This document shows positions 41,843 through 61,426 of a DNA stretch of 64,000 nt, one piece after another. Where the stretch lies: assembly GCF_000013565.1 (NCBI RefSeq), contig NC_007802.1:1550001-1614000 (forward strand), in the 5' to 3' direction. The notes below the pieces were generated by a model that did not search any database, was not told where the DNA came from, and saw only the letters and a program-made list of their open reading frames with translations. This stretch comes from Jannaschia sp. CCS1 (lineage in GTDB: Bacteria; Pseudomonadota; Alphaproteobacteria; Rhodobacterales; Rhodobacteraceae). The translations under genes and the position numbers were made by a program. Position 1 is the first letter of the stretch; the number at the start of each line of letters is the position of its first letter.

Positions 41843-41864
41843 TGCCTGGGTCTAAGGTGTTGGC

Positions 41865-43871: not shown

Positions 43872-43884
43872 CAGAGGTTTCCCC

Positions 43885-45287: not shown

Positions 45288-48200
45288 CTATTCGACCTCG
45301 CCGGACAGGCTGATCCGCGCCTCGCAGGTCACGCCAGGCGGCGTGGCCAACCACACATCCAGCGGGCGCGTTTCCTCCCCCTCATCCTCAAACCGCAGGC
45401 TGCGACCCACGGCCCAGTCGGCGCCGAAGCGCGCCATGATTGTGGGTGCACAGGCCCCTTCGACCCCCACATTCAGCGTATAGGCGCGGGAGGTACCCAG
45501 AATGTTGATTGCCACATCGGGCCGCTCCGTCGCCGTTAGGTCCAGACGTCCCCGCGCCAGCGCCGCTTCAAGGCCTGCATCCTGGGCCTCCGCGCAATCG
45601 CGCAGGGACACATCTCCGCCCGCATCAACGGTGAACCCGCGCCCGCGCTCCAACGCACTGGCCAGGATCGGGATACCGTCCATGGTCCGCTCCAACACCG
45701 CGCAACCGCTTAGATCCGGGCCGGTCGGTGCCCCTGCCAGACGCCAGATCTGGGCCGAGATTCCGTCCACGCTACCGGTCGCCAGATGCGTGTTGTCAAA
45801 GCTGAAATAGCCCTGCGCGGCCGTGCCAAACTCCTGCAATTCAAGGCCTGTGGCCACATCCAGCATGCGGGCCGGGCGCGTGTCCGTGGCCCCGATGAAG
45901 ATCATCTGCCCGTCGGCCGAGATGGAGAGGCTGGCCCGCTCAGACCCCGTGTCGATCGGGCCGGAGCCCCGGATGTCGCCGGTCACCAGATCGATCACGT
46001 CCCAGGTCTCGTCATTGGCGCGCAGGAAACTCAACCTGTCGCCCGATAACCGGTAAAGCGCGTAGTCGGCGCGCGGGGGGATCGTGGCAACCTCATCCTG
46101 TGCGATCAGGTCGTTGAAAATCACCACCTCTCCGCTACTCCGCAGCACCAGAAACCCCTGATCGCCGCCAATGGGCGACAGCGCGGCAACGCTGCCGATC
46201 CCGTTGGGGGCCGTGCGCCGCAACCGTCCATCGGTGTCGAACACCTGCACGCTGGCGGGCGTTAACACTGTGATCTGGTTGGAGGTTTCGGCAAAGGCGA
46301 TGCGCACCGGCGTGCCTTGGGGCACGGTGGTCAGGGTCCGTTCCATCGGTAAGGCGCCAGCTTCGCGCAGGGACGCCATGGCTGTGATCACGATGTTCAC
46401 CTGCCCGCCGCCCGCCGCGCGGGTGAACACGAAGTATGCCTCGTCAGTGCTGATCGCGCGGTTGGCCGTGGTCACCGTGACCGGATCAAACCGCAGGATT
46501 TCGCGCCGCGCGCGCACGTCATAAAGCCTGTTGGGCGACCCGTTGGGTGTGGTCGCGATCAGGTAGGAGCCGCCCGCCGAGAAGCCCAGACGCACGATCT
46601 GGTCGGGGATGCCGCGCGCCAGATGGGCCTCATATGCGCCGGTGGACCGGTCGAACAACGTGATCCCACCCGCACTGTCCACGGCAGCTATGCGTCTGTT
46701 ATCCCAGGAGAACCGCGGCAGAAGGGTGAAGGTGCCGTTGGGCGCGCGCAACGTCGCCTGCTCCCCCCAATCAGCGCGCGCGGCGACCTGCGCTTGCAGT
46801 GACGCGGCAAGTGCGGCTTCCGTTTCCGCGAGCGTGGCGGTGAGCGCTGTGACCTCGGCCTCCATCGCGGCAATCTGTGCGCGCAACTCTGCGGTGTCCG
46901 CGTCAGAGGCGGCGATACGGGTTTGCAGATCCGCCGTTTCGGCTTCGGCGGCGGCGACACGGGCCCGAAGCTCTGCCAGTTCGCCAAGATTGGGCAGGGG
47001 GGCCGCCTCCATCGTCGCGATATCTTCGGTCAGCTGCGCGCGCGCGGCCTCCAGCCCGGCGATCTCTTCCGACAGGCGCGCTTGGGCGGCAGCGGAGGCC
47101 GCGAGGCTGGCTTCCAGCGCTTGGATTTCGGCCTGCGCGGCGGCCAGATCGGTGCCCTGCGCTTCGGCCTGTTGCAACTGTGCCTCCAGCCGGGCTGCGC
47201 GGATGTTGGACGCGCCGAGGGCGGTCTCGGCCGTGGTCAGATCCTCCTCCGCCCGGGTCAGCAAGGCCGCCGTAGTGCGCGCCTCCACCAACCGCCCCGT
47301 CGCCTCGGTCAGGCTGGCTTCCAGGGCCGTGATCTGGGCCCGGGCGGTCGCATCTGCGGCGGTCAGTTCCGAGATTTGTGCCTCTAAAGCAGTGGCTTGG
47401 CTCTGGGTCTCCGTCAGGGATGCGGCTTGCTGTGCGATCTGCTGATCCAGCGCGGCGATCTGCGCCTCCGCCGCGTCGGCGCGCGCGGATTCCGCCGCCG
47501 CTTGCCGTTGTGCCTGGTCGAGCGCGCCTGCCGCGTCGCCGAGCCCCTCCAATTCCCCCTGCAGGGCCGTGATTTCCGCCGCAGCCGCGTCGCGGGCGGC
47601 CCGGGCGGCGTCCAGATCGGCCAATGTCGCGGCCATGTCCCCGTCGGCGGCCTCCAACCGCTGCACTTCAGCCTCGGCCTCGGCCAAAGTGGCCCGCGAC
47701 GCCGCCAGCGCTGCCTCGGACGCGGCCCGTTCCGCCTCCGACGTTTGCAACTGGGTTTCCAACGCGCCGACCTGGGCCGTGACCTCGTCCATTCCGGGCG
47801 TCAGCCAGTCGGGCTGCGCCACCCAGATCGCGGCCCCGGCAGCGCCCATCAACCCCACACCCAGCGCCAATCCGGGCCACAAACGGCCCCGCGGCGCGGC
47901 AATCTCCTCCGTCGCGGGCGGCGTCACCAGCCGCGTCTGCGCATCGGTTAACGCCGTTAACCAGGCGCTGGCGTTGGGTGGCCGCTCCGCCGGGATCATC
48001 CGCAACGCGCGGTCGATCAGCTTCAGAAGACGGGCGTCGTGGGCCGCGTAGGACCCGGCAATGGGCACGTAGGGGTCGGGCTGGCCGGTCGCCACGGCGC
48101 TGGCGCGTTCATCGGCAGGTACGGGCGCGGCCCCGGTGATGACATGGTAGAGCGTCGCGGCCAAAGCATAGAGGTCCGAATGCGGCCCCTGGCTTGCGCC

Positions 48201-48884
48201 TGCCACGTAGAATTCGTGGGGGGAATAGCCGTCGGTGACGACCCGGAACGTGCCCGCCATGCGCGACCGCGCCTGGGTTTCCGCCCGCGCCGCGCCGAAA
48301 TCGATCAGCATCGGCATGCCGAACTGATCAATGCGGATGTTTTGCGGTTTGATATCGCGGTGGAGCACGCCCTGCGCATGGATATAGTCAAGGGCGCCCA
48401 GAAGATCGCGCGCCAGATCCAGCACGCGGGTGGGCGGCAGCGCGTCCCCGGCCATGTCTTCATGCAAATCACGCCCATGGATGAAATCCATCGCCATATA
48501 GGCGGTGCCGTTTTCCTCAAATAGGCTTTGGACATGGACCACGTTGGGGTGGCGCAGGTCGGCCAGCATCCGCGCCTCGCGCAGGAACTGGCCGCGCGCG
48601 GTCTCAAAATGCTCGGACGTGCCGGCGGAGGTGGCGCTGACGGTGTGGGTCATCGCCGCGCGCTGCGCCAGGCCCAGGGGGAAGCATTCCTTCACCGCCA
48701 CATCGCGCCCCAGCGTGTCGCGCGCCAGATAGGTGATGCCGAACCCACCCGACGCGATCAGGCGCACGATCTCATATTGGCCTTCCAACAGTTTCCAGCC
48801 TGCCGGAAGCTCTCCGGCGGGCAGTTGGTGGGTGACGGCATCGGGGCCGCGTTGGGTGGGGGGCAGATCAGCCATGGCGCGCAT
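45288..48884 (-). CDS. Membrane Ser/Thr protein kinase with coiled coil, beta-propeller and Cys-rich C-terminal domain
   Basis: 1198 residues from ATG 48884 (ATG 48875 also possible). Kinase domain ~35-315: LIASGGFGITYLARD, Lys65 in VAVKECFP, HRDIKPQN (175), IDFGAAR (195). Membrane span ~337-357 (GLALGVGLMGAAGAAIWVA). Outside the membrane: an Ala/Glu/Gln-rich coiled coil of ~370 residues, a WD40-like propeller (~760-1060, FSWDNRRIAAVDSAGGITLF, LYDVRARREIL) and a C-terminal module starting GCAVLERTM with four cysteines and LDVWLATPPGVTC. That module is a divergent copy of the domain shared with nearby secreted proteins. It is 99 bp after the second kinase gene, in the same direction. Likely role: sensing outside and phosphorylating the FHA proteins or their partners. 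Confidence 0.9.
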   Translation of the reverse strand: MRAMADLPPTQRGPDAVTHQLPAGELPAGWKLLEGQYEIVRLIASGGFGITYLARDTLGRDVAVKECFPLGLAQRAAMTHTVSATSAGTSEHFETARGQFLREARMLADLRHPNVVHVQSLFEENGTAYMAMDFIHGRDLHEDMAGDALPPTRVLDLARDLLGALDYIHAQGVLHRDIKPQNIRIDQFGMPMLIDFGAARAETQARSRMAGTFRVVTDGYSPHEFYVAGASQGPHSDLYALAATLYHVITGAAPVPADERASAVATGQPDPYVPIAGSYAAHDARLLKLIDRALRMIPAERPPNASAWLTALTDAQTRLVTPPATEEIAAPRGRLWPGLALGVGLMGAAGAAIWVAQPDWLTPGMDEVTAQVGALETQLQTSEAERAASEAALAASRATLAEAEAEVQRLEAADGDMAATLADLDAARAARDAAAAEITALQGELEGLGDAAGALDQAQRQAAAESARADAAEAQIAALDQQIAQQAASLTETQSQATALEAQISELTAADATARAQITALEASLTEATGRLVEARTTAALLTRAEEDLTTAETALGASNIRAARLEAQLQQAEAQGTDLAAAQAEIQALEASLAASAAAQARLSEEIAGLEAARAQLTEDIATMEAAPLPNLGELAELRARVAAAEAETADLQTRIAASDADTAELRAQIAAMEAEVTALTATLAETEAALAASLQAQVAARADWGEQATLRAPNGTFTLLPRFSWDNRRIAAVDSAGGITLFDRSTGAYEAHLARGIPDQIVRLGFSAGGSYLIATTPNGSPNRLYDVRARREILRFDPVTVTTANRAISTDEAYFVFTRAAGGGQVNIVITAMASLREAGALPMERTLTTVPQGTPVRIAFAETSNQITVLTPASVQVFDTDGRLRRTAPNGIGSVAALSPIGGDQGFLVLRSSGEVVIFNDLIAQDEVATIPPRADYALYRLSGDRLSFLRANDETWDVIDLVTGDIRGSGPIDTGSERASLSISADGQMIFIGATDTRPARMLDVATGLELQEFGTAAQGYFSFDNTHLATGSVDGISAQIWRLAGAPTGPDLSGCAVLERTMDGIPILASALERGRGFTVDAGGDVSLRDCAEAQDAGLEAALARGRLDLTATERPDVAINILGTSRAYTLNVGVEGACAPTIMARFGADWAVGRSLRFEDEGEETRPLDVWLATPPGVTCEARISLSGEVE

Positions 48885-48983
48885 ACTCGCGCGCGGGGCA
48901 GGCTTTTGTAAACGGGGGCAAATCCCCACCTCGCTCAGAGCGCTGCGATGGCGGCGCGGCTGCAACAAATGGCATGGCGCGGC

Positions 48984-51110
48984 TTAATTCAGCCAGGTCG
49001 ACAGCTCCAGATCGGCCGTGCAGGTCGTGCCGTCGGCGGTGCCGATCCAGACGTCCAGCCGTCCCTCAATCGCCTGCTGCCCCGACAGGTTCAGGAGCGG
49101 CAGGATGCCTCCGTCGCCGTCATTGTCGAAGTGCCAGACCGTATCCTGGGTGTTGACCAGCAAGGTGGTGTCGCAGACCGAGCTGACCCGCATCTCCACC
49201 CGCTCGAACTGTGCCATCTCCGAAAGGTAGAGCGTATAGGTGGGTGCCGCGGTGACCACGCCCACGACCCCCTCGGGCAGGCCGTCGCAAGCGCCAAGGT
49301 CCGTGGTTCCGGCCACACGCGTGCTCAGGGTTTGGGGCGCGTTGTAGATTTCCGTCCCGGTAAAACGCCGCTCCTCGCCCGGACTGGTCCAGGTGGGGCA
49401 GGCGGCAGCGGCGGGCGGTTGCGCGGGGCCGGGATTGGGCAAGGTTGTTCCGGCCGTCATCAGGTCAATCTCGGCCCGCGTGGTGCGCAATTCCATGCTG
49501 AGGCGCGCGGCCTCGGCCTCCGCCACGTCCAGGTCCGCGGCCATGCGTTGCAGATCCGCCTGGGCGCGGGACGCGGCGCGTTCGGCGACCTCCTGGGCGG
49601 CCAGGGCGGCCGTGCGCTCCGCCTCCATCGCGCCGGTGTCCCCAGAGCCAAGCGCCGCGATCTGCGCCTCAAGCTCGGCGACCTGTCGGGTCAGGGTCTC
49701 TGCCGCCGTCTCCGCAGAGGTTTGCCCGGCCTGCGCCTCGGTCAGCTGCGCGCGCAACGCCTGCGTTTCCGCATCATCGTCTGCACTCGCCGCCCGCAAT
49801 TGGGCGCGCAGGTCCTGCACCGTTTCGGCCAGATCATCGGCCCGCCGGTCCGCCTGGTCGCGGGCGTCGATTGCGGCGTCGATATCGCCCTGCAAGGCCT
49901 CCGCAATGCCCGCCAACTGGGCCAGTTCCGCCTCCATTTCGTCCACGGTCGCCCGTGCCTCGGCCAGATCGCTTTGTAATGTCTCGTCGGTGATTGCGGG
50001 CCCGCTCAGCGCGTAGATCCCCACGCCCATGAGGGCCAGAGCGGACACGCCCGCAATCGCCGCTCCCTTCCAGACACCGCCATTGGCAACAGCAGGCGCG
50101 GGCCCGTCATCGGCCACCGGCGTGATAATCCGCGTCGGGATCTGTGACGTGGTATCAGGGATTGCCGCGAGCCAGGCCGCCGCATCTGAGGGGCGATCCT
50201 TCAGCGGGCGGGCGAGGGCGCGGTCGATCAATGCCAGCAGGCGCGGATCATGGGGGGGGAAACGGCCTGCGATGGGCTCATAGGGATCCGCTTCACCGTT
50301 GGAGACCTTTTGCGCGCGCGCGTCCGCCGGGGCAGGGGCCGCGCCTGAGATGCAATGGTAAAGCGTGGCCGCCAGCGAATAGAGGTCGGAGGCCGGGCCT
50401 TGGTCCGCCCCGGCCACATAGAACTCTCCGGGCGAATAGCCGTCTGACACGACGCGGAAGGTGCCAGCGGCCCGCGATTGCGCCTTGGTTTCCTGCCGGG
50501 CCGCGCCGAAATCGATCACCACGGGGGCATCGAAGGGATCAATGCGGATGTTGGCGGGCTTGATGTCGCGGTGCAGCAGCCGCTCCTTGCCGCGACCGAT
50601 ACCACGGGCGGGCGCGTCACGGTGCAGATAGTCCATCGCCGCCAACAAGGCGCGGGTCAGCTCCATGATATAGGCGGGCGTCAGCAGGCCCGGTTCATCG
50701 GCGATGACCTGCTGCAAATCGCGTCCGTCCACGTAATCCATCGCCATGTAGGCGGTGCCGTTTTCCTCAAACAGCGTCTGGACATGGACGATATTGGGGT
50801 GGCGCAGGGCGGCCAGCATCCGCGCCTCGCGCAGGAACAGGGTGCGCGCCGTCTCAAACGGTTCCGCGGTGGAGGCGCTGGCCGCAGACACGGTGAAATC
50901 GCCCGCGCGCAGGGCAAGACCTGCCGGGAAGCACTCTTTAATGGCGACTTTGCGATCCAGATTGTCGCGCGCCTCATAGGTGATGCCGAAGCCGCCCGCC
51001 GCGATCCGGCCCGTAATCCGGTACATGCCCTGGGACAGCTCTGCGCCCACCGGAAGCTCTCCTGCCGGGGCATCTGGCAAAATCCTGGTCTTGTCTGGAT
51101 CGTCGGACAT
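48984..51110 (-). CDS. Membrane Ser/Thr protein kinase with coiled coil and shared Cys-rich sensor domain
   Basis: 708 residues from ATG 51110. Kinase domain ~25-320: RIAAGGFGITYEARD, Lys58 in VAIKECFP, HRDIKPAN (180), IDFGAAR (200), YSPGEFYVAGADQG. Membrane span ~350-367 (AIAGVSALALMGVGIYAL), then a coiled coil of ~165 residues and the C-terminal domain (~575-708): ACPTWTSPGEE, GLPEGVVG, a TYTLYLSEM strand, CDTTLLVN, WHFDNDGDGG and RLDVWIGTADGTTC. This domain is clearly homologous to the secreted proteins at 54.4, 56.3 and 60.5 kb. It shares its kinase half with the downstream kinase. Probable receptor kinase. Confidence 0.92.
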   Translation of the reverse strand: MSDDPDKTRILPDAPAGELPVGAELSQGMYRITGRIAAGGFGITYEARDNLDRKVAIKECFPAGLALRAGDFTVSAASASTAEPFETARTLFLREARMLAALRHPNIVHVQTLFEENGTAYMAMDYVDGRDLQQVIADEPGLLTPAYIMELTRALLAAMDYLHRDAPARGIGRGKERLLHRDIKPANIRIDPFDAPVVIDFGAARQETKAQSRAAGTFRVVSDGYSPGEFYVAGADQGPASDLYSLAATLYHCISGAAPAPADARAQKVSNGEADPYEPIAGRFPPHDPRLLALIDRALARPLKDRPSDAAAWLAAIPDTTSQIPTRIITPVADDGPAPAVANGGVWKGAAIAGVSALALMGVGIYALSGPAITDETLQSDLAEARATVDEMEAELAQLAGIAEALQGDIDAAIDARDQADRRADDLAETVQDLRAQLRAASADDDAETQALRAQLTEAQAGQTSAETAAETLTRQVAELEAQIAALGSGDTGAMEAERTAALAAQEVAERAASRAQADLQRMAADLDVAEAEAARLSMELRTTRAEIDLMTAGTTLPNPGPAQPPAAAACPTWTSPGEERRFTGTEIYNAPQTLSTRVAGTTDLGACDGLPEGVVGVVTAAPTYTLYLSEMAQFERVEMRVSSVCDTTLLVNTQDTVWHFDNDGDGGILPLLNLSGQQAIEGRLDVWIGTADGTTCTADLELSTWLN

Positions 51111-51354
51111 GAAATGGGCGGCCTGATGGTGGTTTTCCGGGCCGTCATTGCCCCTCAAATGTGGCGAATCCACGCTGAATTAGTAAACGCGCAGCCCCCT
51201 CGGTGCAATTCTGCCCAAGACCCGTGCCCGCACGGTGTGCTTTCCCTTGCGCATCATGCCCTCCCCCCATAGAAGGAGCGCGATTTTCAAGACGATTATG
51301 CCCGCGCGATCACCTATGACGTCGCCGCGCGCGCGAGCTGCAAAGAGGTAACCC

Positions 51355-52680: not shown

Positions 52681-52713
52681 TCCACGCGACTCGCGCGATG
52701 TTTCGCATCCAGG

Positions 52714-52742
52714 GGGCGTCCTTCACGGGGCGCCCTTTTTTC
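52714..52742 (+). terminator. Intrinsic terminator of tig
   Basis: GGGCGTCC (52714-52721) pairs with GGGCGCCC (52728-52735) with one G-U pair, followed by TTTTTTCG. It lies 34 nt after the tig stop. Confidence 0.85.
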
Positions 52743-52920
52743 GTTTGTTAAGCGGCCCTTAAGCCCTCGTGTTATTGAATGACAGGGCCCCGCTTTTGAG
52801 TATCAGGGGCCGTCAAGGGCATAAAACCTGTATCGCCGTATCCCGGCAGTTTGTTGCAAGATACCTTTTTAAAGACGCCTTTTTATTCACCAGATCCATT
52901 CAACCCAAAGGTCTAACCCC

Positions 52921-53595
52921 ATGTTTAAATTTTCCATTGTCCTATCGGTCGGCGTGGTTGCGGCACTTTCAGCCGCCCACGCCGACACATTCATCATTCA
53001 AGGCGATCCGACGCTGGAACCCCCGATCCTCATTGATGAGGAAATCACCGAGCTTCCCGCCCCGTCCGGTCTTCTCGCGCCGGTCGTGCCAGACAGTATT
53101 CTGGACGACCCGGCGTTCCACCGTCTGGCAGAGATGTGTGAGACCATGGGTCTGGCCTGCGACGGCGACCATGACATCGCGGATGCAGGCCCATTCCCGT
53201 TCTGGTTGTTGCCGCATAATGAAGACGCCGCCAAGCGCCTCGCGCAGTTGATCGAGGATCGCGAAGACTTCGCCGAGGCGATGGAAGAGCATTTTGAGAC
53301 ACTGCCCGTGCCCCATGTCGTCCCGGTGCCCCGCCCGCCGCGTATGCTGTTTGGCTGGAATGGTCCGGTGGTCGGCCCGCAATATGCGCCGCTTGTGCGT
53401 CCCCGTGTGACGCCGCAGGTGCCGCTGCAATTCGGGCATCTGTTCCCGACGCGCCCGCATCTGTCTGTGCCCCATGTTCCGCGTCCCGGTGGCGGCGCCC
53501 ACGACCTTTCGGGCTTCTACCATCGCCTGAACACGCCCGCGGTCGTCCCGCGCGCCATTTTGCCCCGTGCCACCTTTCCCTGGCGCACCTTCTGA
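52921..53595 (+). CDS. Secreted protein of unknown function (Pro/His-rich C-terminus)
   Basis: 224 residues. Signal peptide MFKFSIVLSVGVVAALSAAH with probable cleavage after AHA. The mature N-terminus is acidic (LEPPILIDEEITELPAPSG), then a short helical segment with Cys-x6-Cys (AEMCETMGLACDGDHDI) and an AEAMEEHFETLP helix. From ~130 on it is rich in Pro, Val, Arg and His (HVVPVPRPPRM, QVPLQFGHLF, LSVPHVPRPGG). I recognise no family. First of two co-directional secreted proteins, 240 bp after tig; RBS weak. Confidence 0.7.
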   Translation: MFKFSIVLSVGVVAALSAAHADTFIIQGDPTLEPPILIDEEITELPAPSGLLAPVVPDSILDDPAFHRLAEMCETMGLACDGDHDIADAGPFPFWLLPHNEDAAKRLAQLIEDREDFAEAMEEHFETLPVPHVVPVPRPPRMLFGWNGPVVGPQYAPLVRPRVTPQVPLQFGHLFPTRPHLSVPHVPRPGGGAHDLSGFYHRLNTPAVVPRAILPRATFPWRTF

Positions 53596-53685
53596 CCTCT
53601 GACCCCGCCCATGCTCTGCCCCTCACTGACATTACCCGGGGCAGGGCGTCCTTTCTGACCCATCCTTCATTCGAGTAGAAAAAAC

Positions 53686-54195
53686 ATGAAACGCACACTC
53701 CCCCTTTTGGCCGTTCTGGCCGCTACGCTGGCAACGCCTGTCATGGCCCAGAACATCAATTCCATCCTGAACCCCGGTAATTTCGCCGCGCGGCTGAATT
53801 CCGGCGCGCCTGCGATGGCGAACATGCCCACGGATATGTCGAGCCTGTTCCAGGGCGCGAACCCTGCCACGCGTCTGAACCCTGCCGCTGGCAGCCAGAT
53901 CGCCGCACTCGCCCCCACGCCGGAGGTCCGCAGCCTCGCACCACGCACGTCGATGGTGCCGCTGCCGCGCGGTGGCATTGCCCGCGCCGCGACCAGTGTC
54001 GTGACCCCCACGCCCGAGCGGGGCGGTGACCTGATGGCGATGATGGCTGACGCCGCAGAGGCCGCGCCCGAGGGCTCCAACACGCTGGTGATCAACGGCG
54101 CGAACACCGCCGTGATCCAGTCGAGCCCCGGGGCGCTGCCAAGCGCGGCGGAGGCCCCGCGCCGCAGCCTGTGGCAACGTCTGTTCGGTCTCTGA
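53686..54195 (+). CDS. Secreted protein of unknown function
   Basis: 169 residues. Signal peptide MKRTLPLLAVLAATLATPVM with predicted cleavage after VMA. The mature part is low-complexity Ala/Pro/Asn/Ser-rich (NINSILNPGNFAARLNSG, NPATRLNPAAGSQIAAL), with a repeated N-P-x(2-8)-A-x-L pattern, a NTLVINGANTAVIQ strand and a basic tail PRRSLWQRLFGL that could bind membrane. No family recognised. Lies 90 nt after the previous secreted protein and ends in a terminator, suggesting a two-gene unit. No Cys, hence not a copy of the shared domain. Confidence 0.7.
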   Translation: MKRTLPLLAVLAATLATPVMAQNINSILNPGNFAARLNSGAPAMANMPTDMSSLFQGANPATRLNPAAGSQIAALAPTPEVRSLAPRTSMVPLPRGGIARAATSVVTPTPERGGDLMAMMADAAEAAPEGSNTLVINGANTAVIQSSPGALPSAAEAPRRSLWQRLFGL

Positions 54196-54210
54196 GACGT
54201 CCGCGGCAAG

Positions 54211-54240
54211 CCCCGCCCCCTTCCCGGGAGGCGGGGTTTT
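54211..54240 (+). terminator. Intrinsic terminator of the two-gene secreted-protein unit
   Basis: CCCCGCC (54211-54217) pairs with GGCGGGG (54230-54236), followed by TTTTGCTTT. Confidence 0.8.
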
Positions 54241-54428
54241 GCTTTGACCAACCGGAAAAAAGGGCTTTGGTCCCGCGCCGCCCCCCGCTATCGTTATGCG
54301 TGTAAAGCGCAGGTCAGGGTTTCCGTAGTTCTACGGCCATTTTTTTGCCCTAAAGTGATCTCATTAAGTTTGCCAAGGCGGTCTGGCCCCCCCTCTGCCC
54401 ACCGCCACATAAGAAGGAACTCAACACA

Positions 54429-56066
54429 ATGCGTCTCATGACTGCGAGTGCGATCGCGATGTTCGCGATGGGCGGTGCCGCTTTGGCCTGTCCAAATTAT
54501 CAATTGTCCTCCGGGGCGCTGAGCTACGATTCCTCTCAGATCACGGCCGCGCCACAGGGCTTTTCCGTGTCTGCCGGTGGCAACTTCACCCTGGATCAAT
54601 GCGGTCTGGGGCAGCTTGGCTTTGGGCAGTTCCGCTCCGCACCCGATCTGACGCTGAACCTGACGAATATGGCGGGCCGGGAGTTGGACGTGTTTGCCAG
54701 CTCTGACTGTGACCCTGCGCTTCTGGTCAACGACGCGTCGGGCCAGTGGTATTTCAACGACGACCGCAACGGTCTTCAGCCCGGTTTGACGCTGCCCGCC
54801 AATGCCGCCGACGGGCGGGTGGATATCTGGATCGGCACCTTCGCCGGTGGTGGCTGTCCGGCGGTTCTGTCGGTTCAGGCGTTGGGAAGCGGCGCGCAGC
54901 CGATCCCGCAACCTGTTCCTCAGCCGGTTCCGCAGCCCGTGCCACAACCCGTGCCGCAACCGGTGCCGCAACCGGTACCGGTGCCTGTTCCCGCCAGCGC
55001 CTGCCCGACCTGGGCCGAGCCCGGGCCCGCCCTGACCTTCGACGCGAGCGAGATCCTGCAACCGCTCAGCTACGTGGCCCAGGCAACCGGCGGCACGGAT
55101 GTGACGAGCTGCCCCGGTATCGACGGCCGTCGCTTCGCCAGCCAGGTGCCGCAATTCTCAGTCACGTTGAGCGGCATGGAGAACCACAGCCTGCGCCTTC
55201 TGGCCAATGCCGATTGCGACTCGACGCTGCTGGTTAACGGAGCCGATACGACATGGTACTACAATGATGACGGGCAGGGCTCCTTGCAGCCGCAACTCGA
55301 CATCACCGACGCCGCCGCGCTCAATGGCCGGATCGACGTCTGGGTTGGCACCTATAACGACGTGACCTGCAACGGGACGTTCACGATCCAGGCCATCCCG
55401 GTCGCAGCCCCCGCGCCGCAGCCGATCCCGCAGCCCGTGCCCCAGCCGGTGCCTCAACCTGTCCCTCAACCGGTGCCCCAGCCTGTGCCCGTTCCCGTGC
55501 CGACACCTGCACCGGCGCCAGCACCTGCACCGGCGCCAGCTCCTGCACCGGCGCCAGCACCTGCACCTGCACCGGCTCCAGCACCCGCCCCAGCGCCGGC
55601 TCCGGCACCCGCTCCGGTCCCCGGGGGAGCGGCAGTGACGCCAACGGTCGGTTGCCCGACCACGACGCTTGAGGGCATCGCGATCACGACGACGGGGTCT
55701 GAGTTGTACAGCCCCGACAGCTTCACGGTGCAGGCCGGTGGCCAGACGTCACTGTCCACCTGCCCGGATCTGTCTGCCGTGACTGGTGTTGCGAATGCCA
55801 ACCCGCATTACACCTTCTACCTCTCGGGCATGGAGACCTATGGTCGCCTGGAGATCGAAGTGGCCAGCGACTGCGACACCACGCTTTTGGTCAACGATGC
55901 GGCGGGCAACTGGCACTTCAACGACGATGCCGGTGGGGCGTTCCAGCCTGAGCTGAACCTGACGGACACCGCTGCGCTCAATGGCCGGGTGGATGTCTGG
56001 GTCGGTACGTTCGGCAATTCCATCGCGTGCTCGGCCGAGCTGGAGATGGAGACCTGGAACTTCTGA
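54429..56066 (+). CDS. Secreted protein with three copies of the Cys-rich CDTTLLVND domain
   Basis: 545 residues. Signal peptide MRLMTASAIAMFAMGGAALA, cleaved before or near CPNYQ. Three ~130-residue domains start at about residues 21, 192 and 408 (ACPNYQ, ACPTWA, GCPTTT). Each has four cysteines, a CDxxLLVN core, [FY]NDD and GRxD[IV]W[IV]GT. Domains 1-2 and 2-3 are joined by Pro-rich linkers built of QPVP and AP units. The third domain is the closest to the small protein at 56.3 kb and the kinase sensor. The function is unknown; the same domain in kinase ectodomains points to a shared ligand or mutual binding. It has its own terminator and no neighbour overlap. Confidence 0.85.
   Translation: MRLMTASAIAMFAMGGAALACPNYQLSSGALSYDSSQITAAPQGFSVSAGGNFTLDQCGLGQLGFGQFRSAPDLTLNLTNMAGRELDVFASSDCDPALLVNDASGQWYFNDDRNGLQPGLTLPANAADGRVDIWIGTFAGGGCPAVLSVQALGSGAQPIPQPVPQPVPQPVPQPVPQPVPQPVPVPVPASACPTWAEPGPALTFDASEILQPLSYVAQATGGTDVTSCPGIDGRRFASQVPQFSVTLSGMENHSLRLLANADCDSTLLVNGADTTWYYNDDGQGSLQPQLDITDAAALNGRIDVWVGTYNDVTCNGTFTIQAIPVAAPAPQPIPQPVPQPVPQPVPQPVPQPVPVPVPTPAPAPAPAPAPAPAPAPAPAPAPAPAPAPAPAPAPAPVPGGAAVTPTVGCPTTTLEGIAITTTGSELYSPDSFTVQAGGQTSLSTCPDLSAVTGVANANPHYTFYLSGMETYGRLEIEVASDCDTTLLVNDAAGNWHFNDDAGGAFQPELNLTDTAALNGRVDVWVGTFGNSIACSAELEMETWNF
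54897..54992 (+). repeat. QPVP tandem linker repeat
   Basis: In-frame 12-bp units, CAGCC-NGT-NCC type, encoding QPVP about seven times between domains 1 and 2 of the secreted protein. Units vary at third positions. Confidence 0.85.
55419..55622 (+). repeat. QPVP and AP tandem linker repeat
   Basis: QPVP units followed by an Ala-Pro run (about 25 AP units with GCXCCX codons). It forms an extended spacer of ~68 residues between domains 2 and 3. It is likely to expand or contract between strains. Confidence 0.85.
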
Positions 56067-56090
56067 TCGCAGATCACATCAGTGAAAATG

Positions 56091-56126
56091 AGGGGCGCGA
56101 CCTACCATGGTCGCGCCCCTTTTTCG
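56091..56126 (+). terminator. Intrinsic terminator of the three-domain secreted protein gene
   Basis: Perfect 12-bp stem AGGGGCGCGACC/GGTCGCGCCCCT (56091-56102, 56109-56120) with a 6-nt loop, then TTTTTC. Confidence 0.95.
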
Positions 56127-56317
56127 TGGGCAAGCCCAAGGCCGGTGTCATCGGGCAGGGCGGAGGTAAGGAATCCCGGCCTTTCGTGCAATCGGGCGCG
56201 ATTGCATAGTCTCCCCATAGCGCAACACCAATTCACCGCGCTCGTCACACATGATCAACACGTCAGAAAATTTGAAGACAACCCCTTCTAAGACAAAGAA
56301 AATTTGGAGTACCCAGT

Positions 56318-56773
56318 ATGAAAAAGCTTGTCGCCGCCGCCTTTGCCCTGATCGCCACTGCGGGCATCGCCGCCGCGTGTCCCGCCTACCAGAATGCAGG
56401 CGTTCAATCGGGCTACACCACGGGTCAGGACCTGTGGACACCCAACAGCTACTCGGTCACGGCCGGTGGCAGCCAGAACCTGCGCAATTGCGGGTTCAAC
56501 CATTCGGGCTACGTGATCTCGCGTCCTGACTTTGAATTCCGCATCGACGGTTTGGAAAGCTACCGCCGCCTGGAGATCCGCGTGAACGGGTCCTGCGACA
56601 CGGTTCTGCTGGTCAATGATGCGACGGGCAACTGGTACTTCAACGACGATGGCTGGGGCAACCTGAACCCGCTGCTGAACGTGCACAACCCGCGCTCGGG
56701 CGTCTATGACATCTGGGTTGGCACCTATGGCCAGAACCTGTGTGGCGCGACGCTTCAGATGGAAACCTTCTGA
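56318..56773 (+). CDS. Small secreted protein: single Cys-rich CDTTLLVND-type domain
   Basis: 151 residues. Signal peptide MKKLVAAAFALIATAGIAAA, then one ~130-residue copy of the shared domain: CPAYQNAG, SYSVTAGG, CGFNHSGYV, FEFRIDGLESYRRLEIRV, CDTVLLVNDATGNWYFNDD and VYDIWVGTYGQNLC. Four Cys suggest two disulfides. It is the minimal form of the module and the best candidate for structure work. 251 nt after the three-domain protein, with its own start region and a terminator behind it. Function unknown. Confidence 0.82.
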   Translation: MKKLVAAAFALIATAGIAAACPAYQNAGVQSGYTTGQDLWTPNSYSVTAGGSQNLRNCGFNHSGYVISRPDFEFRIDGLESYRRLEIRVNGSCDTVLLVNDATGNWYFNDDGWGNLNPLLNVHNPRSGVYDIWVGTYGQNLCGATLQMETF

Positions 56774-56796
56774 TCTGACCGGTATCTTTCACGAAT

Positions 56797-56826
56797 ACGG
56801 CCCGCCTATACCGGCGGGCCGTTTTG
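56797..56826 (+). terminator. Intrinsic terminator of the single-domain protein gene
   Basis: Perfect 10-bp stem ACGGCCCGCC/GGCGGGCCGT (56797-56806, 56813-56822) with loop TATACC, then TTTGCG. Confidence 0.85.
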
Positions 56827-56970
56827 CGTTTGGACGGGGGTGACGCTGGCCTACGGGTTTTCGCCAAGCGAAACCCGTAAGCCTCGCCCCACCCACCGTC
56901 CCGCAGCGATGTTTCGCGTTGTGGGTTGCCGGGGCCTGAGACAAGCTAAGCGGCAACAGGGGGACTTGGC

Positions 56971-57600
56971 ATGACATTTGAGGTTTGGGTGGCGTTTGCT
57001 GTGGCCAGCGCAATCGTGGTGGTCATCCCCGGGCCCAATATCGTGCTGACGGTGACCTATGCGATCCGGGACGGCGCGCGGTCGGGCCTGGCCACGGTGC
57101 CCGGCACGGTTGTGGGGGCGTTCATCGCCATGACCGCGTCCTTGGCCGGGGCGGGGGCGATCCTGGCCACGTCTGTCGGGCTTTTCACTGTGATGAAGGT
57201 GGCGGGGGCGGTATATCTGCTGTGGCTGGCCTACAAGTTGTGGACAGCGCCCGTGGGGGCAATCACCACGACAGAGAACGCCCCGGACCGAGGGCTTTGG
57301 AGGCTGTTTCGCCAATCGGCGTTGATCAGCGCGCTCAATCCCAAGGGGCCGGTCTTCTACATGGCCTTTGTGCCGCAATTCGTGGACCCGGCCCACCCTG
57401 TCTTTGCGCAATTCGTGATCCTGACGGCCACGTTTCTGGCCGTGGCCGCCCTGAACGGGATGGGATGGTTGGTGTTGGCGGCGGCCTGGCGCGACCGTCT
57501 GCGTGGGCCTTTCGTCCTGCGGTTGATCAACCGGATCGGAGCGGCGTGCCTGGGGGCGGCGGGGCTGTTCGCCCTGCGCGCCAGCCGAAGCGCAAGCTAG
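56971..57600 (+). CDS. LysE/RhtB-family amino-acid exporter
   Basis: 209 residues, six hydrophobic segments. Family signature VVVIPGPNIVLTVTYAIRDG, then GLATVPGTVVGAFIAM, KVAGAVYLLWLAYKLW, FRQSALISALNPKGPVFYM. Unlike the LysE in the betaine operon, this copy has the standard GPN motif. It likely exports an amino acid such as threonine, homoserine or lysine. It is convergent with the sugar-dehydrogenase gene: the two coding ends overlap by 4 nt. Confidence 0.88.
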   Translation: MTFEVWVAFAVASAIVVVIPGPNIVLTVTYAIRDGARSGLATVPGTVVGAFIAMTASLAGAGAILATSVGLFTVMKVAGAVYLLWLAYKLWTAPVGAITTTENAPDRGLWRLFRQSALISALNPKGPVFYMAFVPQFVDPAHPVFAQFVILTATFLAVAALNGMGWLVLAAAWRDRLRGPFVLRLINRIGAACLGAAGLFALRASRSAS

Positions 57601-58823
57601 CCCGCAGCGGGCGTCAGCCGGATCAGCGCGCCCGGATCATCGTCGATCAGGATCAGGATCGCGCCGTCGGCGTCGAGTTCCACATCGCGCACGCGGCCCT
57701 CTCCGGTGCGGAACCGCTCCTCCCCGATGACGGAGGTCCCGTCGATATCCAGCCGCACAAGGGCCTGCCCGGCCAGCGCACCCAGGAGGATATCGCCCTG
57801 CCAGTCCGGGAACATGTCGCCGTCGTAGAACACCATGTCCGACGGCGCGATGGACGGGTCCCAGAAGTAGCGGGGTTCAATGAAATCGGGGGCATGGGCC
57901 TGTTCGCCACTGCCCACATCAGAGCCGTTGTAATTCACCCCGTAGCTGACCATGGGCCAGCCGTAATTGCCGCCCTCTTCGATAATGTTAAGCTCGTCGC
58001 CGCCCGCAGGACCGTGTTCGAGGGTCCATAACAGATCGGTGCCGGGCTGGATGGCAGCGCCCTGACTATTGCGGTGTCCGTAGCTGACGATGCCGGGCAA
58101 GACGTCGCGAAGGGCGTCGTTGGCGGTGGGAGACCCATCGGGCAGGAACCCCACGACAACCCCGTAGGCGGCGTTGACGGGATCTTGGGCCAACTGGCGG
58201 TTTTCCGAGGTGAAGCGGTCCCCGGTGGTCACGATCAGCCCACCGTCGGGCTGAACGATCACCCGACTGCCGAAATGGGCGGGGATGGCGGAGGCCGGGG
58301 TTTGTCGCCAGAGCTCTGTCACCTGCTCCAGTGCGGTGTGATCGTCGGACAGGGTGGCGCGGGCCAGGGCGGTGGCGGACCCGGCCAGCCCATCGCGCGC
58401 GGCGTAGGTCAGATACAAGATACGGCTGTCGTCGAAATCAGGGGCAAGGGTCACATCAAGCAGACCGCCCTGGCGCATCGCACGCACGTTCGGCACGCCG
58501 GATATTTCGGGGCCCATGGTGCCATCGCGGGTGATGTGCCGCAGGGTGCCGCCCCGTTCGGTCACGATGTAGCCCGCGCCGTCGGGCAACACGGCAAGGC
58601 CCCAGGGCCGGGACAGCGCGCCGGTGATGACCTCTTCGTCGAAGGTCGCGCCTGAGTTGATCTCTGGCGCGTCTGTCTGGCCTTCGAAGGCGGGGATGGT
58701 ATCGGGCAAATTTGCCGTGCCGTCGTCAACGGGGGCTTGCGCCAAAGAGGCCCCGGCGAGGAGCACAGCGAGGAGCGGACTGAGAGAGAGAGCGGGCGAA
58801 ATGCGAAGCATGGAGGACCTCAT
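57597..58823 (-). CDS. PQQ-dependent aldose sugar dehydrogenase-like protein
   Basis: 408 residues (ATG 58823; 58811 is possible). N-terminal signal peptide (SLSPLLAVLLAGASLAQA) for the periplasm. The beta-propeller of the soluble sugar dehydrogenase/YliI family is apparent: ALSRPWGLAVLPDGAGYIVT, GGLLDVTLAPDF, a TTGDRF strand, YGHRNSQGAAIQPGTDLLW (His-Arg-Asn near PQQ) and EHGPAGGDELNIIEEGGNYG. It should oxidise aldoses with PQQ and pass electrons to the respiratory chain. Divergent from rplI's terminator and convergent with LysE. Confidence 0.9.
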   Translation of the reverse strand: MRSSMLRISPALSLSPLLAVLLAGASLAQAPVDDGTANLPDTIPAFEGQTDAPEINSGATFDEEVITGALSRPWGLAVLPDGAGYIVTERGGTLRHITRDGTMGPEISGVPNVRAMRQGGLLDVTLAPDFDDSRILYLTYAARDGLAGSATALARATLSDDHTALEQVTELWRQTPASAIPAHFGSRVIVQPDGGLIVTTGDRFTSENRQLAQDPVNAAYGVVVGFLPDGSPTANDALRDVLPGIVSYGHRNSQGAAIQPGTDLLWTLEHGPAGGDELNIIEEGGNYGWPMVSYGVNYNGSDVGSGEQAHAPDFIEPRYFWDPSIAPSDMVFYDGDMFPDWQGDILLGALAGQALVRLDIDGTSVIGEERFRTGEGRVRDVELDADGAILILIDDDPGALIRLTPAAG

Positions 58824-58840
58824 GTTGCGACGTTTCCATA

Positions 58841-58870
58841 GAAATAGGCCGCCCCCGCAAGGAGACGGCC
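58841..58870 (-). terminator. Probable terminator of the rpsF-rpsR-rplI operon
   Basis: On the minus strand GGCCGTCTCC pairs with GGGGGCGGCC (two G-U pairs) with a TTGC loop, followed by TATTTC. It is 34 nt past the rplI stop. Confidence 0.6.
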
Positions 58871-58903
58871 CATTTTTTCGTGATCCGTCAGGACCGGCGG
58901 ATT

Positions 58904-59539
58904 TTAGTCCTCTTCAGAGCTTTCTTCCGAAGACGGGTCAGCTTGGGCCGGTGCGGGCGCATCGTCATCGTCGTCATCCATGCCGGCGGCACCGATGTCG
59001 TCGAACAATTCCGCGATCTCGAACTCGGCCTGCGCCTCTTCCTCGGCGGCGAGGTCCTGGATGGACTTGCCGGAGGCCTGAAGCTCTGCTTCTTCAGGGG
59101 AGCGGGCCACGTTCAGTTCAATCTCGACCTCAACTTCGGGGTGGAGAATGACCATGACAGTGTGGATGCCCAGGTCCTTGATCGGCGCGATCAGGGCGAC
59201 CTGCTTGCGGTCCACGGTGAAGCCCTCGGCCGTGGCGGCCTCGGCGGCGTCACGGATGGTGACGGAGCCATAAAGTGCACCGCTGTCCGAGGCGGAGCGG
59301 ATGATGACGAATTGCTGGCCTGCCAGCTTCTCGCCCATCGCTTCCGCTTCCTTGCGGGTCTCAAGGTTGGTTGCCTCAAGCTGCGCTTTCTGGTTCTCAA
59401 ACGCGGCCAGGTTCATCTCATTGGCGCGCAGCGCTTTTTTCTGCGGCAGAAGGAAGTTGCGCGCGTAGCCTTCTTTGACAGAGACCACTTCGCCCATCTG
59501 ACCCAGCTTGGCCACACGTTCCAGAAGGATAACATCCAT
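58904..59539 (-). CDS. rplI: 50S ribosomal protein L9 with long acidic C-terminal tail
   Basis: 211 residues, against ~150 in Escherichia coli. The N-terminal L9 domain is clear: [40 protein letters not shown]. The C-terminal domain follows (~75-150). The additional last ~50 residues are extremely acidic ([19 protein letters not shown], then DDDDDD and EESSEED). Third gene of the S6-S18-L9 operon, 12 nt after rpsR. L9 binds 23S rRNA at the L1 stalk base. The acidic tail is typical of some alphaproteobacteria but is long here. Confidence 0.97.
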
Positions 59540-59551
59540 TGTCTGTGCTCC

Positions 59552-59779
59552 TTATTTGACGGCGTAGGGCAGCAGGGCCAGGAACCGCGCGCGTTTGATC
59601 GCCTTGGCGAGCGCACGCTGGTTCTTGGCACCGACAGCGGTGATACGGGAGGGGACGATCTTGCCACGCTCGGAAATGTAGCGTTGCAGGAGGCGGGTGT
59701 CTTTATAGTCGATCTTCGGCGCGTTCTCGCCCTCAAACGGGTCGGTCTTGCGGCGGCGGAAGAATGGTTTTGCAGCCAT
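59552..59779 (-). CDS. rpsR: 30S ribosomal protein S18
   Basis: 75 residues from ATG 59779 ([20 protein letters not shown]); upstream ATGs are ignored because GGACAC/AAAGGAC lies right before this one. The core [20 protein letters not shown] and [20 protein letters not shown] is fully conserved. S18 pairs with S6 on the small-subunit platform. Second gene of the operon. Confidence 0.97.
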
Positions 59780-59841
59780 CGGAGTGTCCTTTCGGGTATG
59801 GGTCGCGGTCACGCGGTCCCTGATAGAATCAGCAAGAGGGG

Positions 59842-60195
59842 TTAGCGGCGCTCGCGGCGACCTTCACGCTCATCACGCTTTTGCATCTGGACCGACGGGC
59901 CCTCGTCATGGGCGTCGACCTTGATAGTCAGGACGCGCATCACGTCATCATGCAGGCGCATCAGGCGTTCCATTTCCTGCACGGCGTCAGATGGCGCATC
60001 GGTGCGGAGGTAGGAATAGTGACCCTTGCGGTTCTTGTTGATCTTGTAGGCCATTGTCTTGACACCCCAATATTCGGTGTCGACAACCGTGCCGCCATTG
60101 TCGGCGAGGACGGCGCCAAAGTGCTCGTTCAGCGCTTCGGCCTGCGCGTTGGACAGGTCCTGACGCGCAATCATCACGTGCTCGTAGAGAGCCAT
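59842..60195 (-). CDS. rpsF: 30S ribosomal protein S6
   Basis: 117 residues; [20 protein letters not shown] and [20 protein letters not shown] are diagnostic. The C-terminus carries the basic tail [17 protein letters not shown] 5 nt before ATG. First gene of rpsF-rpsR-rplI. In other bacteria S6:S18 represses this operon by binding its mRNA leader; the leader here has two pairing segments that could form such a switch (separate entry). Confidence 0.97.
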
Positions 60196-60302
60196 GGGAA
60201 CTCCAGTTCATCGTTTCGGGCGCATTTCAAAGGCCGGGCTGTTGGCATCCTTGCGCCCCGGCCACGAGGGATCACGCCAATCAATTGATCTCGCAAGGAT
60301 GC
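60196..60302 (-). promoter_or_regulatory. Candidate structured rpsF leader (S6:S18 autoregulation?)
   Basis: Two perfect pairings interleave: GCATCCTTGCG (60245-60255) with CGCAAGGATGC (60292-60302), and GGCCGGG (60232-60238) with CCCGGCC (60257-60263). Because each pair spans one arm of the other, they form either a pseudoknot or alternative structures. S6:S18 leaders of other bacteria carry a CCG bulge; GGCCGGGG/CCCGGCC is a candidate, but I could not confirm the consensus. Confidence 0.4.
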
Positions 60303-60547
60303 GGGCGTGTACGCCGCCGGGCGGGTCTTGTCTACCCCGCGCGACGCTGCGCCCCGCGGATCGGGCCAGTGATCATAGGGATTTCCGGTTTTTGCCGCAT
60401 TCTCACCACGATGTTCGGGCATCGAGGGAGAGGATATTGCCGCCCGGATGCCGGGTGAGCGGGTGATGAGGGGCATTTCAGCCCTTATCATCACTATAAT
60501 TTCAAGGGCGCACGCGCCCCCGCAGGACCAGAAACGGAGGCCCTCCC
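60303..60547. other. Intergenic region between divergent rpsF and the pilin-like gene
   Basis: No gene is supported in this stretch. On the plus strand TATAAT (60495-60500), 47 nt before the GTG start of the pilin-like gene, is a perfect -10, but no good -35 (GGCATT at ~60472) is in place. The rpsF promoter should be at the other end; I did not find a convincing one. Confidence 0.4.
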
Positions 60548-61426
60548 GTGGCGTACCAGAAGTTTTTGAAGAATGAACATGGCGCCGCGACGGTCGATTG
60601 GGTTGTCGTGATGGCGGCGCTTGTTGGCCTGGGCGTGGCGGTGACGAACCAGACAGATGCCGCCCTGACCACGGAATCGCAGAACATTCAGGGTGAATTT
60701 CAAAACGGCATGTTCGAGACCGCATGGGACAGCTCATTGGCCGTCCAGCCGGATCAGGATGCCGGCACCACGTGCACGGGCGGCACGTCCTGCGATCCGG
60801 GCACGGGCAGTGGGGGCACCACCCTTTGGACCGGAACGACGACGGACCCCGATCCGGACCCCGATCCCGATCCCGACCCAACGCCGGATCCCGACCCCGA
60901 TCCAACGCCGGATCCTGATCCCGATCCGACGACCGACCCGGATCCTGATCCGGACCCCGATCCTGACCCCGATCCCACACCGGAACCGGCAAGCGCGCCT
61001 GCGGCAGGCTGCCCGTCGACCAACTATTTCGGCGTGCCGATCGCATCGGACGGCTCGGACTTTGGCAACAACAACGATTACACGCTCCGCACCAGCGGCT
61101 ACACTAACCTGCGCTCCTGCTCAGGCTTGCCGAACAGACGCGGTTTCTTCGACGCCAACCCATCGTTCACGCTGACGCTGAGCGACATGGAGCAGTTCAA
61201 TCGGGTGCAGTTCCTGATCGAATCGACCAATTGCGACACCACGCTGCTGATCCGCGATGCGTCGGGCACGTTCCACTTCAACGACGATTTCAACTTCCCG
61301 ACGCACACACGATCCCGGTTGATCCTGAATGACACTGCCAGCCTGAATGGTCGTGTCGACATCTGGATCGGGCGGTATAATCCGGGGCAGTGTATTTCGA
61401 CGCTGGAAATCCGCGAACGCAACTAG
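60548..61426 (+). CDS. Flp-pilin-like protein with Asp-Pro repeat and Cys-rich CDTTLLVND-type domain
   Basis: 292 residues from GTG 60548 (GGAGG 7 nt upstream). The N-terminus FLKNEHGAATVDWVVVMAAL resembles class IVb Flp/TadE-type pilin signals (GAATVDW with the +5 acidic residue), i.e. a membrane-anchored or polymerising helix. An Asp-Pro repeat of ~45 residues follows (~100-145), then the shared domain (~154-292): GCPSTNYFG, TLTLSDMEQFNRVQF, CDTTLLIRDASGTFHFNDD and GRVDIWIGRYNPGQC. A fusion of pilin-like helix, DP spacer and this domain is novel to me. Not near any tad/cpa pilus gene. Followed by a hairpin at 61454. Confidence 0.82.
   Translation: MAYQKFLKNEHGAATVDWVVVMAALVGLGVAVTNQTDAALTTESQNIQGEFQNGMFETAWDSSLAVQPDQDAGTTCTGGTSCDPGTGSGGTTLWTGTTTDPDPDPDPDPDPTPDPDPDPTPDPDPDPTTDPDPDPDPDPDPDPTPEPASAPAAGCPSTNYFGVPIASDGSDFGNNNDYTLRTSGYTNLRSCSGLPNRRGFFDANPSFTLTLSDMEQFNRVQFLIESTNCDTTLLIRDASGTFHFNDDFNFPTHTRSRLILNDTASLNGRVDIWIGRYNPGQCISTLEIRERN
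60845..60978 (+). repeat. Asp-Pro coding tandem repeat
   Basis: About 22 in-frame GAYCCN codon pairs (Asp-Pro), interrupted by Thr-Pro and Thr-Thr. It is a spacer between the pilin-like helix and the Cys-rich domain. Confidence 0.9.

What the first reader, a model, noticed from the sequence alone, without database searches (positions are those of the whole stretch)
45291..61423. An undescribed four-cysteine domain shared by two receptor-type kinases and three secreted or surface proteins
Seven copies of one ~130-residue domain occur in five genes within 16 kb: end of kinase 2 (48987-49400), divergent copy at end of kinase 1 (45291-45704), three in the protein at 54429 (from about 54489, 55002 and 55652), one at 56378-56770 and one at 61010-61423. 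Seen directly: four Cys in matching order, CDTTLLVN core, [FY]NDD acidic loop, GRxDVWxGT and a final Cys. I know of no named family with this pattern. In the kinases it lies after a membrane span and coiled coil; elsewhere it follows signal peptides, so all copies should be outside the cytoplasm. The inference is a sensor that shares a ligand with, or binds, the secreted copies.
Basis: partly seen in the sequence, partly recalled or inferred. Interest (0 to 1): 0.88.

Follow-up and report, generated by a model that had tools for sequence, protein, structure and literature searches.

The report
Kinases carrying a secreted-protein binding domain
Seven copies of a probably disulfide-braced binding domain, which looks distantly related to a domain found on secreted proteases, sit in five genes of a marine bacterium; relatives use it on exported proteins, and this genus also carries it on the outer end of membrane signalling kinases.

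Summary
All seven copies are real, including the weak one on kinase 1, and the genome has at least four more. One of the three "secreted" proteins begins with a pilin-like segment, not a signal peptide.

No Pfam or NCBIfam model covers the domain, but AlphaFold gives a confident all-beta fold, and the kinase-2 copy's best solved match is a pre-peptidase C-terminal (PPC) domain. Four distant members match Pfam PPC below its cut-off. I place it as a two-disulfide, PPC-like branch.

The domain occurs in 44 of 248 sampled genera of the family. None of 27 domain-bearing genomes outside the genus has either kinase. Exported copies sit in an old tig-rplI-rpsF-fabD neighbourhood; the kinases came later, and the kinase-2 domain groups mostly with last-repeat copies of the neighbouring triple-domain protein. 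One relative keeps the exported set, lacks kinase 1, and has stops in kinase 2 and the phosphatase.

Beyond the given region, two FHA proteins and a PP2C phosphatase lie beside the kinases: a phospho-signalling cassette. Most likely the kinases are periplasmic sensors that captured a local binding domain. Ligand and pairing are unshown.

The parts
45288..48884 (-). kinase 1 (1198 aa from the ATG chosen here): Hanks-type kinase, membrane span, long coiled coil, beta-propeller-like region (weak), divergent copy of the domain
   Evidence: translation; Pkinase PF00069 E 2.3e-32, propeller models only below cut-off
45291..45713 (-). divergent domain copy K1: four Cys kept, acidic loop lost
   Evidence: 33.9 bits to the A3 profile, best of 2000 shuffles 9.8
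48984..51110 (-). kinase 2 (708 aa): Hanks-type kinase with HRD and DFG motifs, membrane span, coiled coil, domain
48987..49406 (-). domain copy K2; predicted mostly-beta fold, pLDDT 95.8
54429..56066 (+). secreted protein with three domain copies joined by Pro-rich linkers (signal peptide by eye)
54486..54887 (+). domain copy S1a
54996..55400 (+). domain copy S1b
55647..56063 (+). domain copy S1c; K2, S3 and this copy fall in one 37-row clade
56318..56773 (+). secreted single-domain protein (signal peptide by eye)
56372..56770 (+). domain copy S2; predicted nine-strand fold, pLDDT 96.9
60548..61426 (+). protein with Flp/TadE-like N-terminal helix, DP-repeat stalk and one domain copy
61004..61423 (+). 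domain copy S3
38855..39472 (+). FHA-domain protein beside the kinases
   Evidence: PF00498 35.1 bits, cut-off 20.7
39457..40992 (+). PP2C phosphatase beside the kinases; orthologue (59% or more) in 13 of 13 genus genomes, partial in G003
   Evidence: PF13672 48.2 bits, cut-off 24
41865..43871 (+). FHA domain fused to a long C-terminal part without Pfam match; in 13 of 13 genus genomes and 0 of 68 others
   Evidence: PF00498 60.4 bits
51355..52680 (+). trigger factor gene (tig; name recalled from the sequence, no family scan), left border of the old neighbourhood
   Evidence: conserved neighbour in relatives

Best explanation
The domain is a two-disulfide, PPC-like beta-sandwich binding module of exported proteins in Rhodobacteraceae and relatives. 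Its old home is the tig-rplI-rpsF-fabD neighbourhood, where it is made as small and multi-domain secreted proteins and on pilin-like stalks. In the ancestor of the window's genus, a kinase-FHA-PP2C phospho-signalling cassette settled next to tig, and its tandem receptor kinases took up a copy of the last-repeat type as ectodomain. Inferred action: the ectodomain binds a polypeptide or polymer in the periplasm, which changes kinase pairing through the coiled coil; the kinases phosphorylate threonines, FHA proteins read them and PP2C resets them. Shown by computation: domain family, predicted fold, neighbourhood, kinase distribution, cassette content. Inferred: disulfide pairing, ligand binding, kinase activation, FHA output. 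Not shown: any contact with the exported copies.
For: Fold: pLDDT 96.9 for S2 and 95.8 for K2. For K2 the only solved match below E 0.001 is PPC domain 5sv5 (E 2.9e-4, TM by target 0.67). For S2, subtilases hold ranks 2-6 and 5sv5 rank 12 (E 4.9e-4). Four distant members hit Pfam PPC at E 1.8e-4 to 0.11. Cysteines: 304 of 335 unique near-full-length copies have the same four; 18 have a different pair only. Neighbourhood across genera. Kinase distribution. K2 lies in a 37-row clade of mostly last-repeat and S3-type copies, SH-aLRT 95. Cassette; a paralogous kinase-FHA-PP2C-dynamin cassette lies elsewhere in the genome. K2 is under purifying selection, dN 0.27-0.35 against dS 0.82-1.43 in six comparisons. 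Other PPC domains bind proteins (PMC3327674, abstract; PMC8799719, passages).
Against: No member scanned passes the Pfam PPC cut-off (best 22.8 against 25.9 bits). Profile-profile probability is at most 60%. For S2 the best solved match is a CUB domain, and GOLD and other jelly rolls score alike, so the PPC link could be convergence. The last-repeat origin of K2 rests on 136 columns and a quick tree; the nearest branch was second-repeat copies of four other loci. Kinase activity, topology, export and disulfides were not tested.
Confidence: 0.6

Rival explanations
1. One reading: the kinases are receptors for the neighbouring secreted copies, or for a ligand shared with them.
For: In 13 of 13 genomes of the genus kinase 2 with the domain and exported copies occur together; in the window they lie about 3 kb apart.
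Against: 27 of 27 tested domain-bearing genomes outside the genus lack the kinases. Sister genomes hold counterparts of S1a, S1b, S1c, S2 and S3 without kinases. G004 keeps the exported copies while kinase 1 is missing and kinase 2 and PP2C each have an in-frame stop in the assembly.
Confidence: 0.15
2. The domain is a passive structural module; on the kinases it only spaces, stabilises or anchors the ectodomain and senses nothing.
For: The kinase-1 copy lost the acidic loop. The kinase-2 copy changes fast: dN about four times that of the catalytic part.
Against: Kinase-2 copies stay under purifying selection and keep the core motif and all four Cys.
Confidence: 0.2
3. The domain belongs to another jelly-roll family (CUB-like or GOLD-like) and its likeness to PPC is convergence.
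For: For S2 the top solved match is a CUB domain (E 2.2e-5); many CUB domains also have two disulfides (recalled).
Against: No CUB or GOLD model appeared in Pfam scans of 89 and 26 members at E up to 10, whereas PPC did. The K2 model ranks PPC first. Two own-genome members are joined to trypsin-like proteases, a usual PPC setting (recalled).
Confidence: 0.15

Closest known systems
PPC domain (Pfam PF04151), including collagenase collagen-binding domains
   Same: Predicted beta fold of similar kind in exported proteins; the CDT core, the acidic loop and the G-x-Y-D-I-W strand align with a PPC profile; fused to proteases in two own-genome members; fold matches.
   Different: Below the Pfam cut-off; about 133 residues against a 70-position Pfam model; four conserved Cys; in the loci read mostly stand-alone, tandem, pilin-linked or kinase-linked rather than protease tails.
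Receptor Ser/Thr kinases with extracytoplasmic sensors (PrkC/PknB with PASTA, PknD with beta-propeller)
   Same: Hanks kinase, single membrane span, external sensor. Sensor types per PMC3601408 (passages).
   Different: No PASTA match. The sensor is a PPC-like domain on a coiled coil, in an alphaproteobacterium. Kinase 1 adds a propeller-like region before the domain.
Kinase-FHA-PP2C-dynamin cassette elsewhere in the same genome
   Same: Kinase 46% identical, with FHA and PP2C genes next to it; kinase and PP2C matches within about 3 kb in six other genera.
   Different: No PPC-like ectodomain found on that kinase (446-452 aa frame); dynamin-like GTPases instead of TauE/SafE and the FHA fusion.
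Flp/TadE pilin-like proteins
   Same: The 61-kb protein and relatives begin with a G-x-x-T-[VI]-D-W-like hydrophobic helix; two relatives have TadE-like starts.
   Different: All Pfam scores below cut-off; the body is a DP-rich stalk with the domain at the end.

Membership tests
PPC (PF04151) | score at or over the Pfam gathering cut-off (25.9 bits) | tested here: not met
   best member 22.8 bits, E 1.8e-4; 4 of 26 A2 and 1 of 89 A3 members matched at all, E up to 10
PPC (PF04151) | PPC-type beta-sandwich fold | tested here: inconclusive
   K2: 5sv5 first, E 2.9e-4, TM by target 0.67; S2: 5sv5 twelfth, E 4.9e-4, CUB first; predicted models only
PPC (PF04151) | attached to secreted peptidases | tested here: inconclusive
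   two trypsin-like fusions in the own genome; the copies in the window are not on peptidases
PPC (PF04151) | binds protein substrates or calcium | not testable with these tools
   protein binding reported for other PPC domains (PMC3327674 abstract, PMC8799719 passages)
CUB | sequence match to a CUB model | tested here: not met
   no CUB among the 21 and 8 families listed for 89 and 26 members
Hanks-type Ser/Thr receptor kinase | kinase domain with HRD and DFG motifs | tested here: met
   PF00069 E 2.3e-32 and 7.4e-28; motifs read
Hanks-type Ser/Thr receptor kinase | sensor outside the membrane | not tested
   one hydrophobic span read by eye; no topology test
PASTA kinase (PrkC/PknB) | extracellular PASTA repeats | tested here: not met
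   no PASTA family among the 13 Pfam matches of P0002; for P0001 25 of 32 were shown and none was PASTA; PknB_PASTA_kin model 115-131 bits against cut-off 450
Flp1-like / TadE pilin-like | Pfam match to the N-terminal helix | tested here: inconclusive
   PF16982 E 0.13; PF07811 E 0.0036 and 0.0087 in two relatives; all below cut-off

The most novel reading that the evidence does not exclude
The genus rewired an old exported-protein system into a signalling loop: by capturing the domain of its secreted and pilin-linked neighbours, each kinase reads the same surface polymer that those proteins bind, or binds them directly by like-to-like contact, and reports envelope or surface state to an FHA and PP2C output. 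The exported proteins themselves would be a new type of ligand or co-receptor.
Probability: 0.15. Interest if true: 0.75.

Novelty: new variant of a known kind. Interest (0 to 1): 0.5.

Why it matters
A domain family of Rhodobacteraceae and relatives that the Pfam and NCBIfam copies searched here do not list gets a predicted fold and a likely superfamily. The locus shows a receptor kinase that seems to have acquired its sensor from neighbouring exported-protein genes, with living relatives that have only the exported part. PPC-like domains elsewhere bind proteins, and the kinases come with FHA and PP2C partners, so ligand and output can be tested directly in marine laboratory strains.

Tried and rejected
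Rejected: the domain being wholly novel (PPC likeness). Set aside: phage or plasmid origin. PHROGs gave one short match (17 residues, E 0.0014, unknown function) and two above E 2; P0004 had no plasmid match at E 1e-5; phage records were not searched. T6SS origin of the kinase cassette: none of the ten proteins scanned around the paralogous cassette matched a T6SS family. Defence-system membership: the PADLOC hits are kinase models that I read as generic.

Led nowhere: sequence searches of solved structures (0 matches at E up to 10 for A1, A2 and A3). Paper searches for such a kinase listed nothing that names it; the library is incomplete, and I saw listings only, except for three papers.

Limits: the family, class and phylum searches scored at most 16 or 10 candidates per genome, so copy numbers there are lower bounds. 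One search's print was cut from L106 to L119; one search recounted kinase and tig matches over all 94 loci. Loci L147-L164 partly repeat contigs of L071-L146. The 312-copy count (all 312 with exactly four Cys) is not de-duplicated; the 335-copy count (335 of 356 unique, the other 21 too gappy) is. The relatives were partly fetched with patterns that include a Cys, which biases Cys counts upward.
Full report
What is there. Five genes carry seven copies of one domain of about 133 residues. Six copies are mutually significant (E about 1e-13 to 4e-34). The kinase-1 copy needed a family profile: 33.9 bits with an 89-row model against at most 9.8 bits in 2000 shuffles; its orthologue in genome G009 of the same genus scored 37.3. 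An own-genome search found 11 copies: the seven, plus a copy behind an LCCL domain, one in a Cys-rich repeat protein, and two in front of trypsin-like proteases.

Which organism. The closest named relatives are mostly Roseicyclus assemblies, with a Roseibacterium and others nearby. The genome tool holds 13 genomes of the window's genus, its own included; I call these the core genus.

The domain family. The whole proteins gave no Pfam or NCBIfam match over cut-off in the domain; one sub-threshold hit lay there (Phage_TTP_13, E 0.038). In a diverse 26-row set four members matched PF04151 (PPC), best E 1.8e-4 and 22.8 bits, under the cut-off of 25.9; the others were at 18.4, 15.9 and 13.8 bits. 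In the 89-row four-cysteine set one member matched PPC at E 0.12. Searching genomes with PF04151 itself found one of the same members (G039, E 8.3e-4, below cut-off), and the 89-row profile weakly hit a true PPC protein of the own genome (17.8 bits over two partial stretches). Profile-profile probabilities against an 11-sequence PPC alignment were 3% (A1), 27% (A2) and 60% (A3). No PDB sequence matched A1, A2 or A3.

Fold. AlphaFold models reached pLDDT 96.9 for S2 and 95.8 for the kinase-2 copy; both are built of strands, with two short helices in the kinase-2 copy. For the kinase-2 copy, PPC domain 5sv5 was the only match below E 0.001. For S2 there were 20 such matches: a CUB domain first, subtilases at ranks 2-6, GOLD, a lysozyme inhibitor (PliG), an enterotoxin fragment many times, and 5sv5 at rank 12; a ColG collagen-binding domain came at rank 28, E 1.9e-3. 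I read this as PPC-like, with convergence not excluded.

Cysteines. Among 335 unique near-full-length copies, 304 carry all four Cys, 18 carry only an alternative pair, 11 lack one of the first two, one lacks the last, and one keeps the first pair and lacks the second. That single case and the 18 suggest pairs C3-C39 and C76-C126. The pairing is inferred.

Spread. One genome per genus of the family: 44 of 248 with a match at E 1e-10. Class sample with the wider profile: 17 of 385. Phylum sample: 22 of 398, one of them outside the class. In one search, four listed frames of 600 residues or more outside the own genome carry the domain; a scan of all four found no kinase domain. They are two TadE-like proteins, one with an HpiC1-like domain and one with six copies and LCCL.

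Neighbourhood. Of the 94 larger loci examined, 43 hold both a domain copy and the gene matching the window's tig (33 of the 76 found by name; five of the 43 repeat contigs already counted), and 27 of those 33 also hold rplI, rpsF and fabD matches. Gene names are mine, from reading the window sequences; relatives were matched by BLAST. The kinase part of kinase 1 or 2 matched in six of the 94 loci, all core genus (L071, L072, L074, L075, L158, L159). A seventh core locus, L077, ends inside tig and could not show it. Sister loci L076, L078, L079, L124 and L153 have exported copies there and no kinase. In the first tree, the S1a, S1b, S1c, S2 and S3 positions of the genus have counterparts in such sisters, so the exported set appears older than the kinases.

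Kinases. A search with residues 1-376 of kinase 2 in 81 relatives gave 24 genomes with a match. Kinase-2 orthologues of at least 75% identity appeared in 12 of 13 core genomes, and a contig-end fragment (72%) in the thirteenth, G008. With the contig-end pieces of G003 and G008, kinase 2 with the domain is present in 13 of 13. Kinase 1 (59-64% to kinase 2) was found in 12 of 13 and not in G004. Outside the genus the matches were at most 48% identical. In 33 genomes named by locus, 6 are core (they repeat genomes) and had them; of the 27 others 8 had some kinase, at most 53% identical over a short stretch, and none an orthologue. In G004 kinase 2 and PP2C each have one in-frame stop in the assembly and kinase 1 is absent, while its exported copies S1a-c, S2 and S3 are uninterrupted and 64-92% identical to the window's. 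This may be decay or assembly error.

Origin of the kinase copy. In a 129-row tree the five kinase-2 copies fall in a 37-row clade (SH-aLRT 95) with last-repeat copies, four second-repeat copies, S3-type copies and the own LCCL copy. Holding kinase-1 and kinase-2 copies together was not rejected (p-AU 0.731), but the kinase-1 branch is very long. In one search the kinase-2 copies stood next to second-repeat copies of four loci (support 83). Kinase 1 and 2 look like tandem paralogues.

A finding beyond the given coordinates. Upstream of the kinases lie an FHA protein, a PP2C phosphatase and an FHA fusion, all over Pfam cut-offs for those domains. The FHA fusion is in 13 of 13 core genomes and 0 of 68 others. 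The PP2C orthologue (59% or more) is in 13 of 13; other PP2C matches are at most 51%. The own genome has a second kinase-FHA-PP2C cassette with two dynamin-like genes, and in G015, G017, G019, G052, G053 and G064 kinase and PP2C matches lie within about 3 kb. So the window's kinases probably come from a wider cassette type that gained an ectodomain.

How it probably works. From the layout, the kinase is inside, one span crosses the membrane, and a coiled coil carries the domain in the periplasm; this is inferred. PPC domains elsewhere bind proteins through Asp and aromatic residues (PMC3327674, abstract read) or collagen (PMC8799719, passages read). A review holds that receptor-kinase sensors act by helping the kinase domains dimerise (PMC3601408, passages read). 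By analogy the kinase-2 domain binds a polymer or protein and shifts kinase pairing. Its sequence changes about four times faster (dN) than the catalytic part, yet remains under purifying selection: fitting for a sensor, or for a relaxed spacer.

Verdict. Real, not listed in the libraries searched, PPC-like. The kinase link is genus-specific in these samples. The pairing with secreted copies is not needed for those copies to exist, and remains open inside the genus.

Noticed in passing
38855-45287: FHA protein, PP2C phosphatase, unknown 343-aa frame, FHA fusion, a hydrophobic protein (by eye) and TauE/SafE next to the kinases: a phospho-signalling cassette.
   Followed up: yes
41865-43871: FHA domain fused to about 550 residues without any Pfam match, which look like a flavin-dependent oxidoreductase to my eye (no call supports that); 13 of 13 core genomes, 0 of 68 others.
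   Followed up: partly
L237 8267-15316: Second kinase-FHA-PP2C cassette in the same genome with two dynamin-like GTPases.
   Followed up: partly
L159 3867-6101 and L236: In genome G004 kinase 2 and PP2C carry in-frame stops and kinase 1 is absent, while the exported copies are uninterrupted.
   Followed up: partly
L155 7549-9936; L164 9397-11277: The domain at the end of TadE-like proteins in two other genera, suggesting pilus or surface display.
   Followed up: partly
L012 4304-5581; L101 6491-9751: The domain together with an LCCL domain, once in the own genome and once behind six copies in Pararhodobacter.
   Followed up: no
52921-53595 and 53686-54195: Two small exported-looking proteins without Pfam match between tig and the domain genes; homologues of one or both in some core loci.
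   Followed up: no
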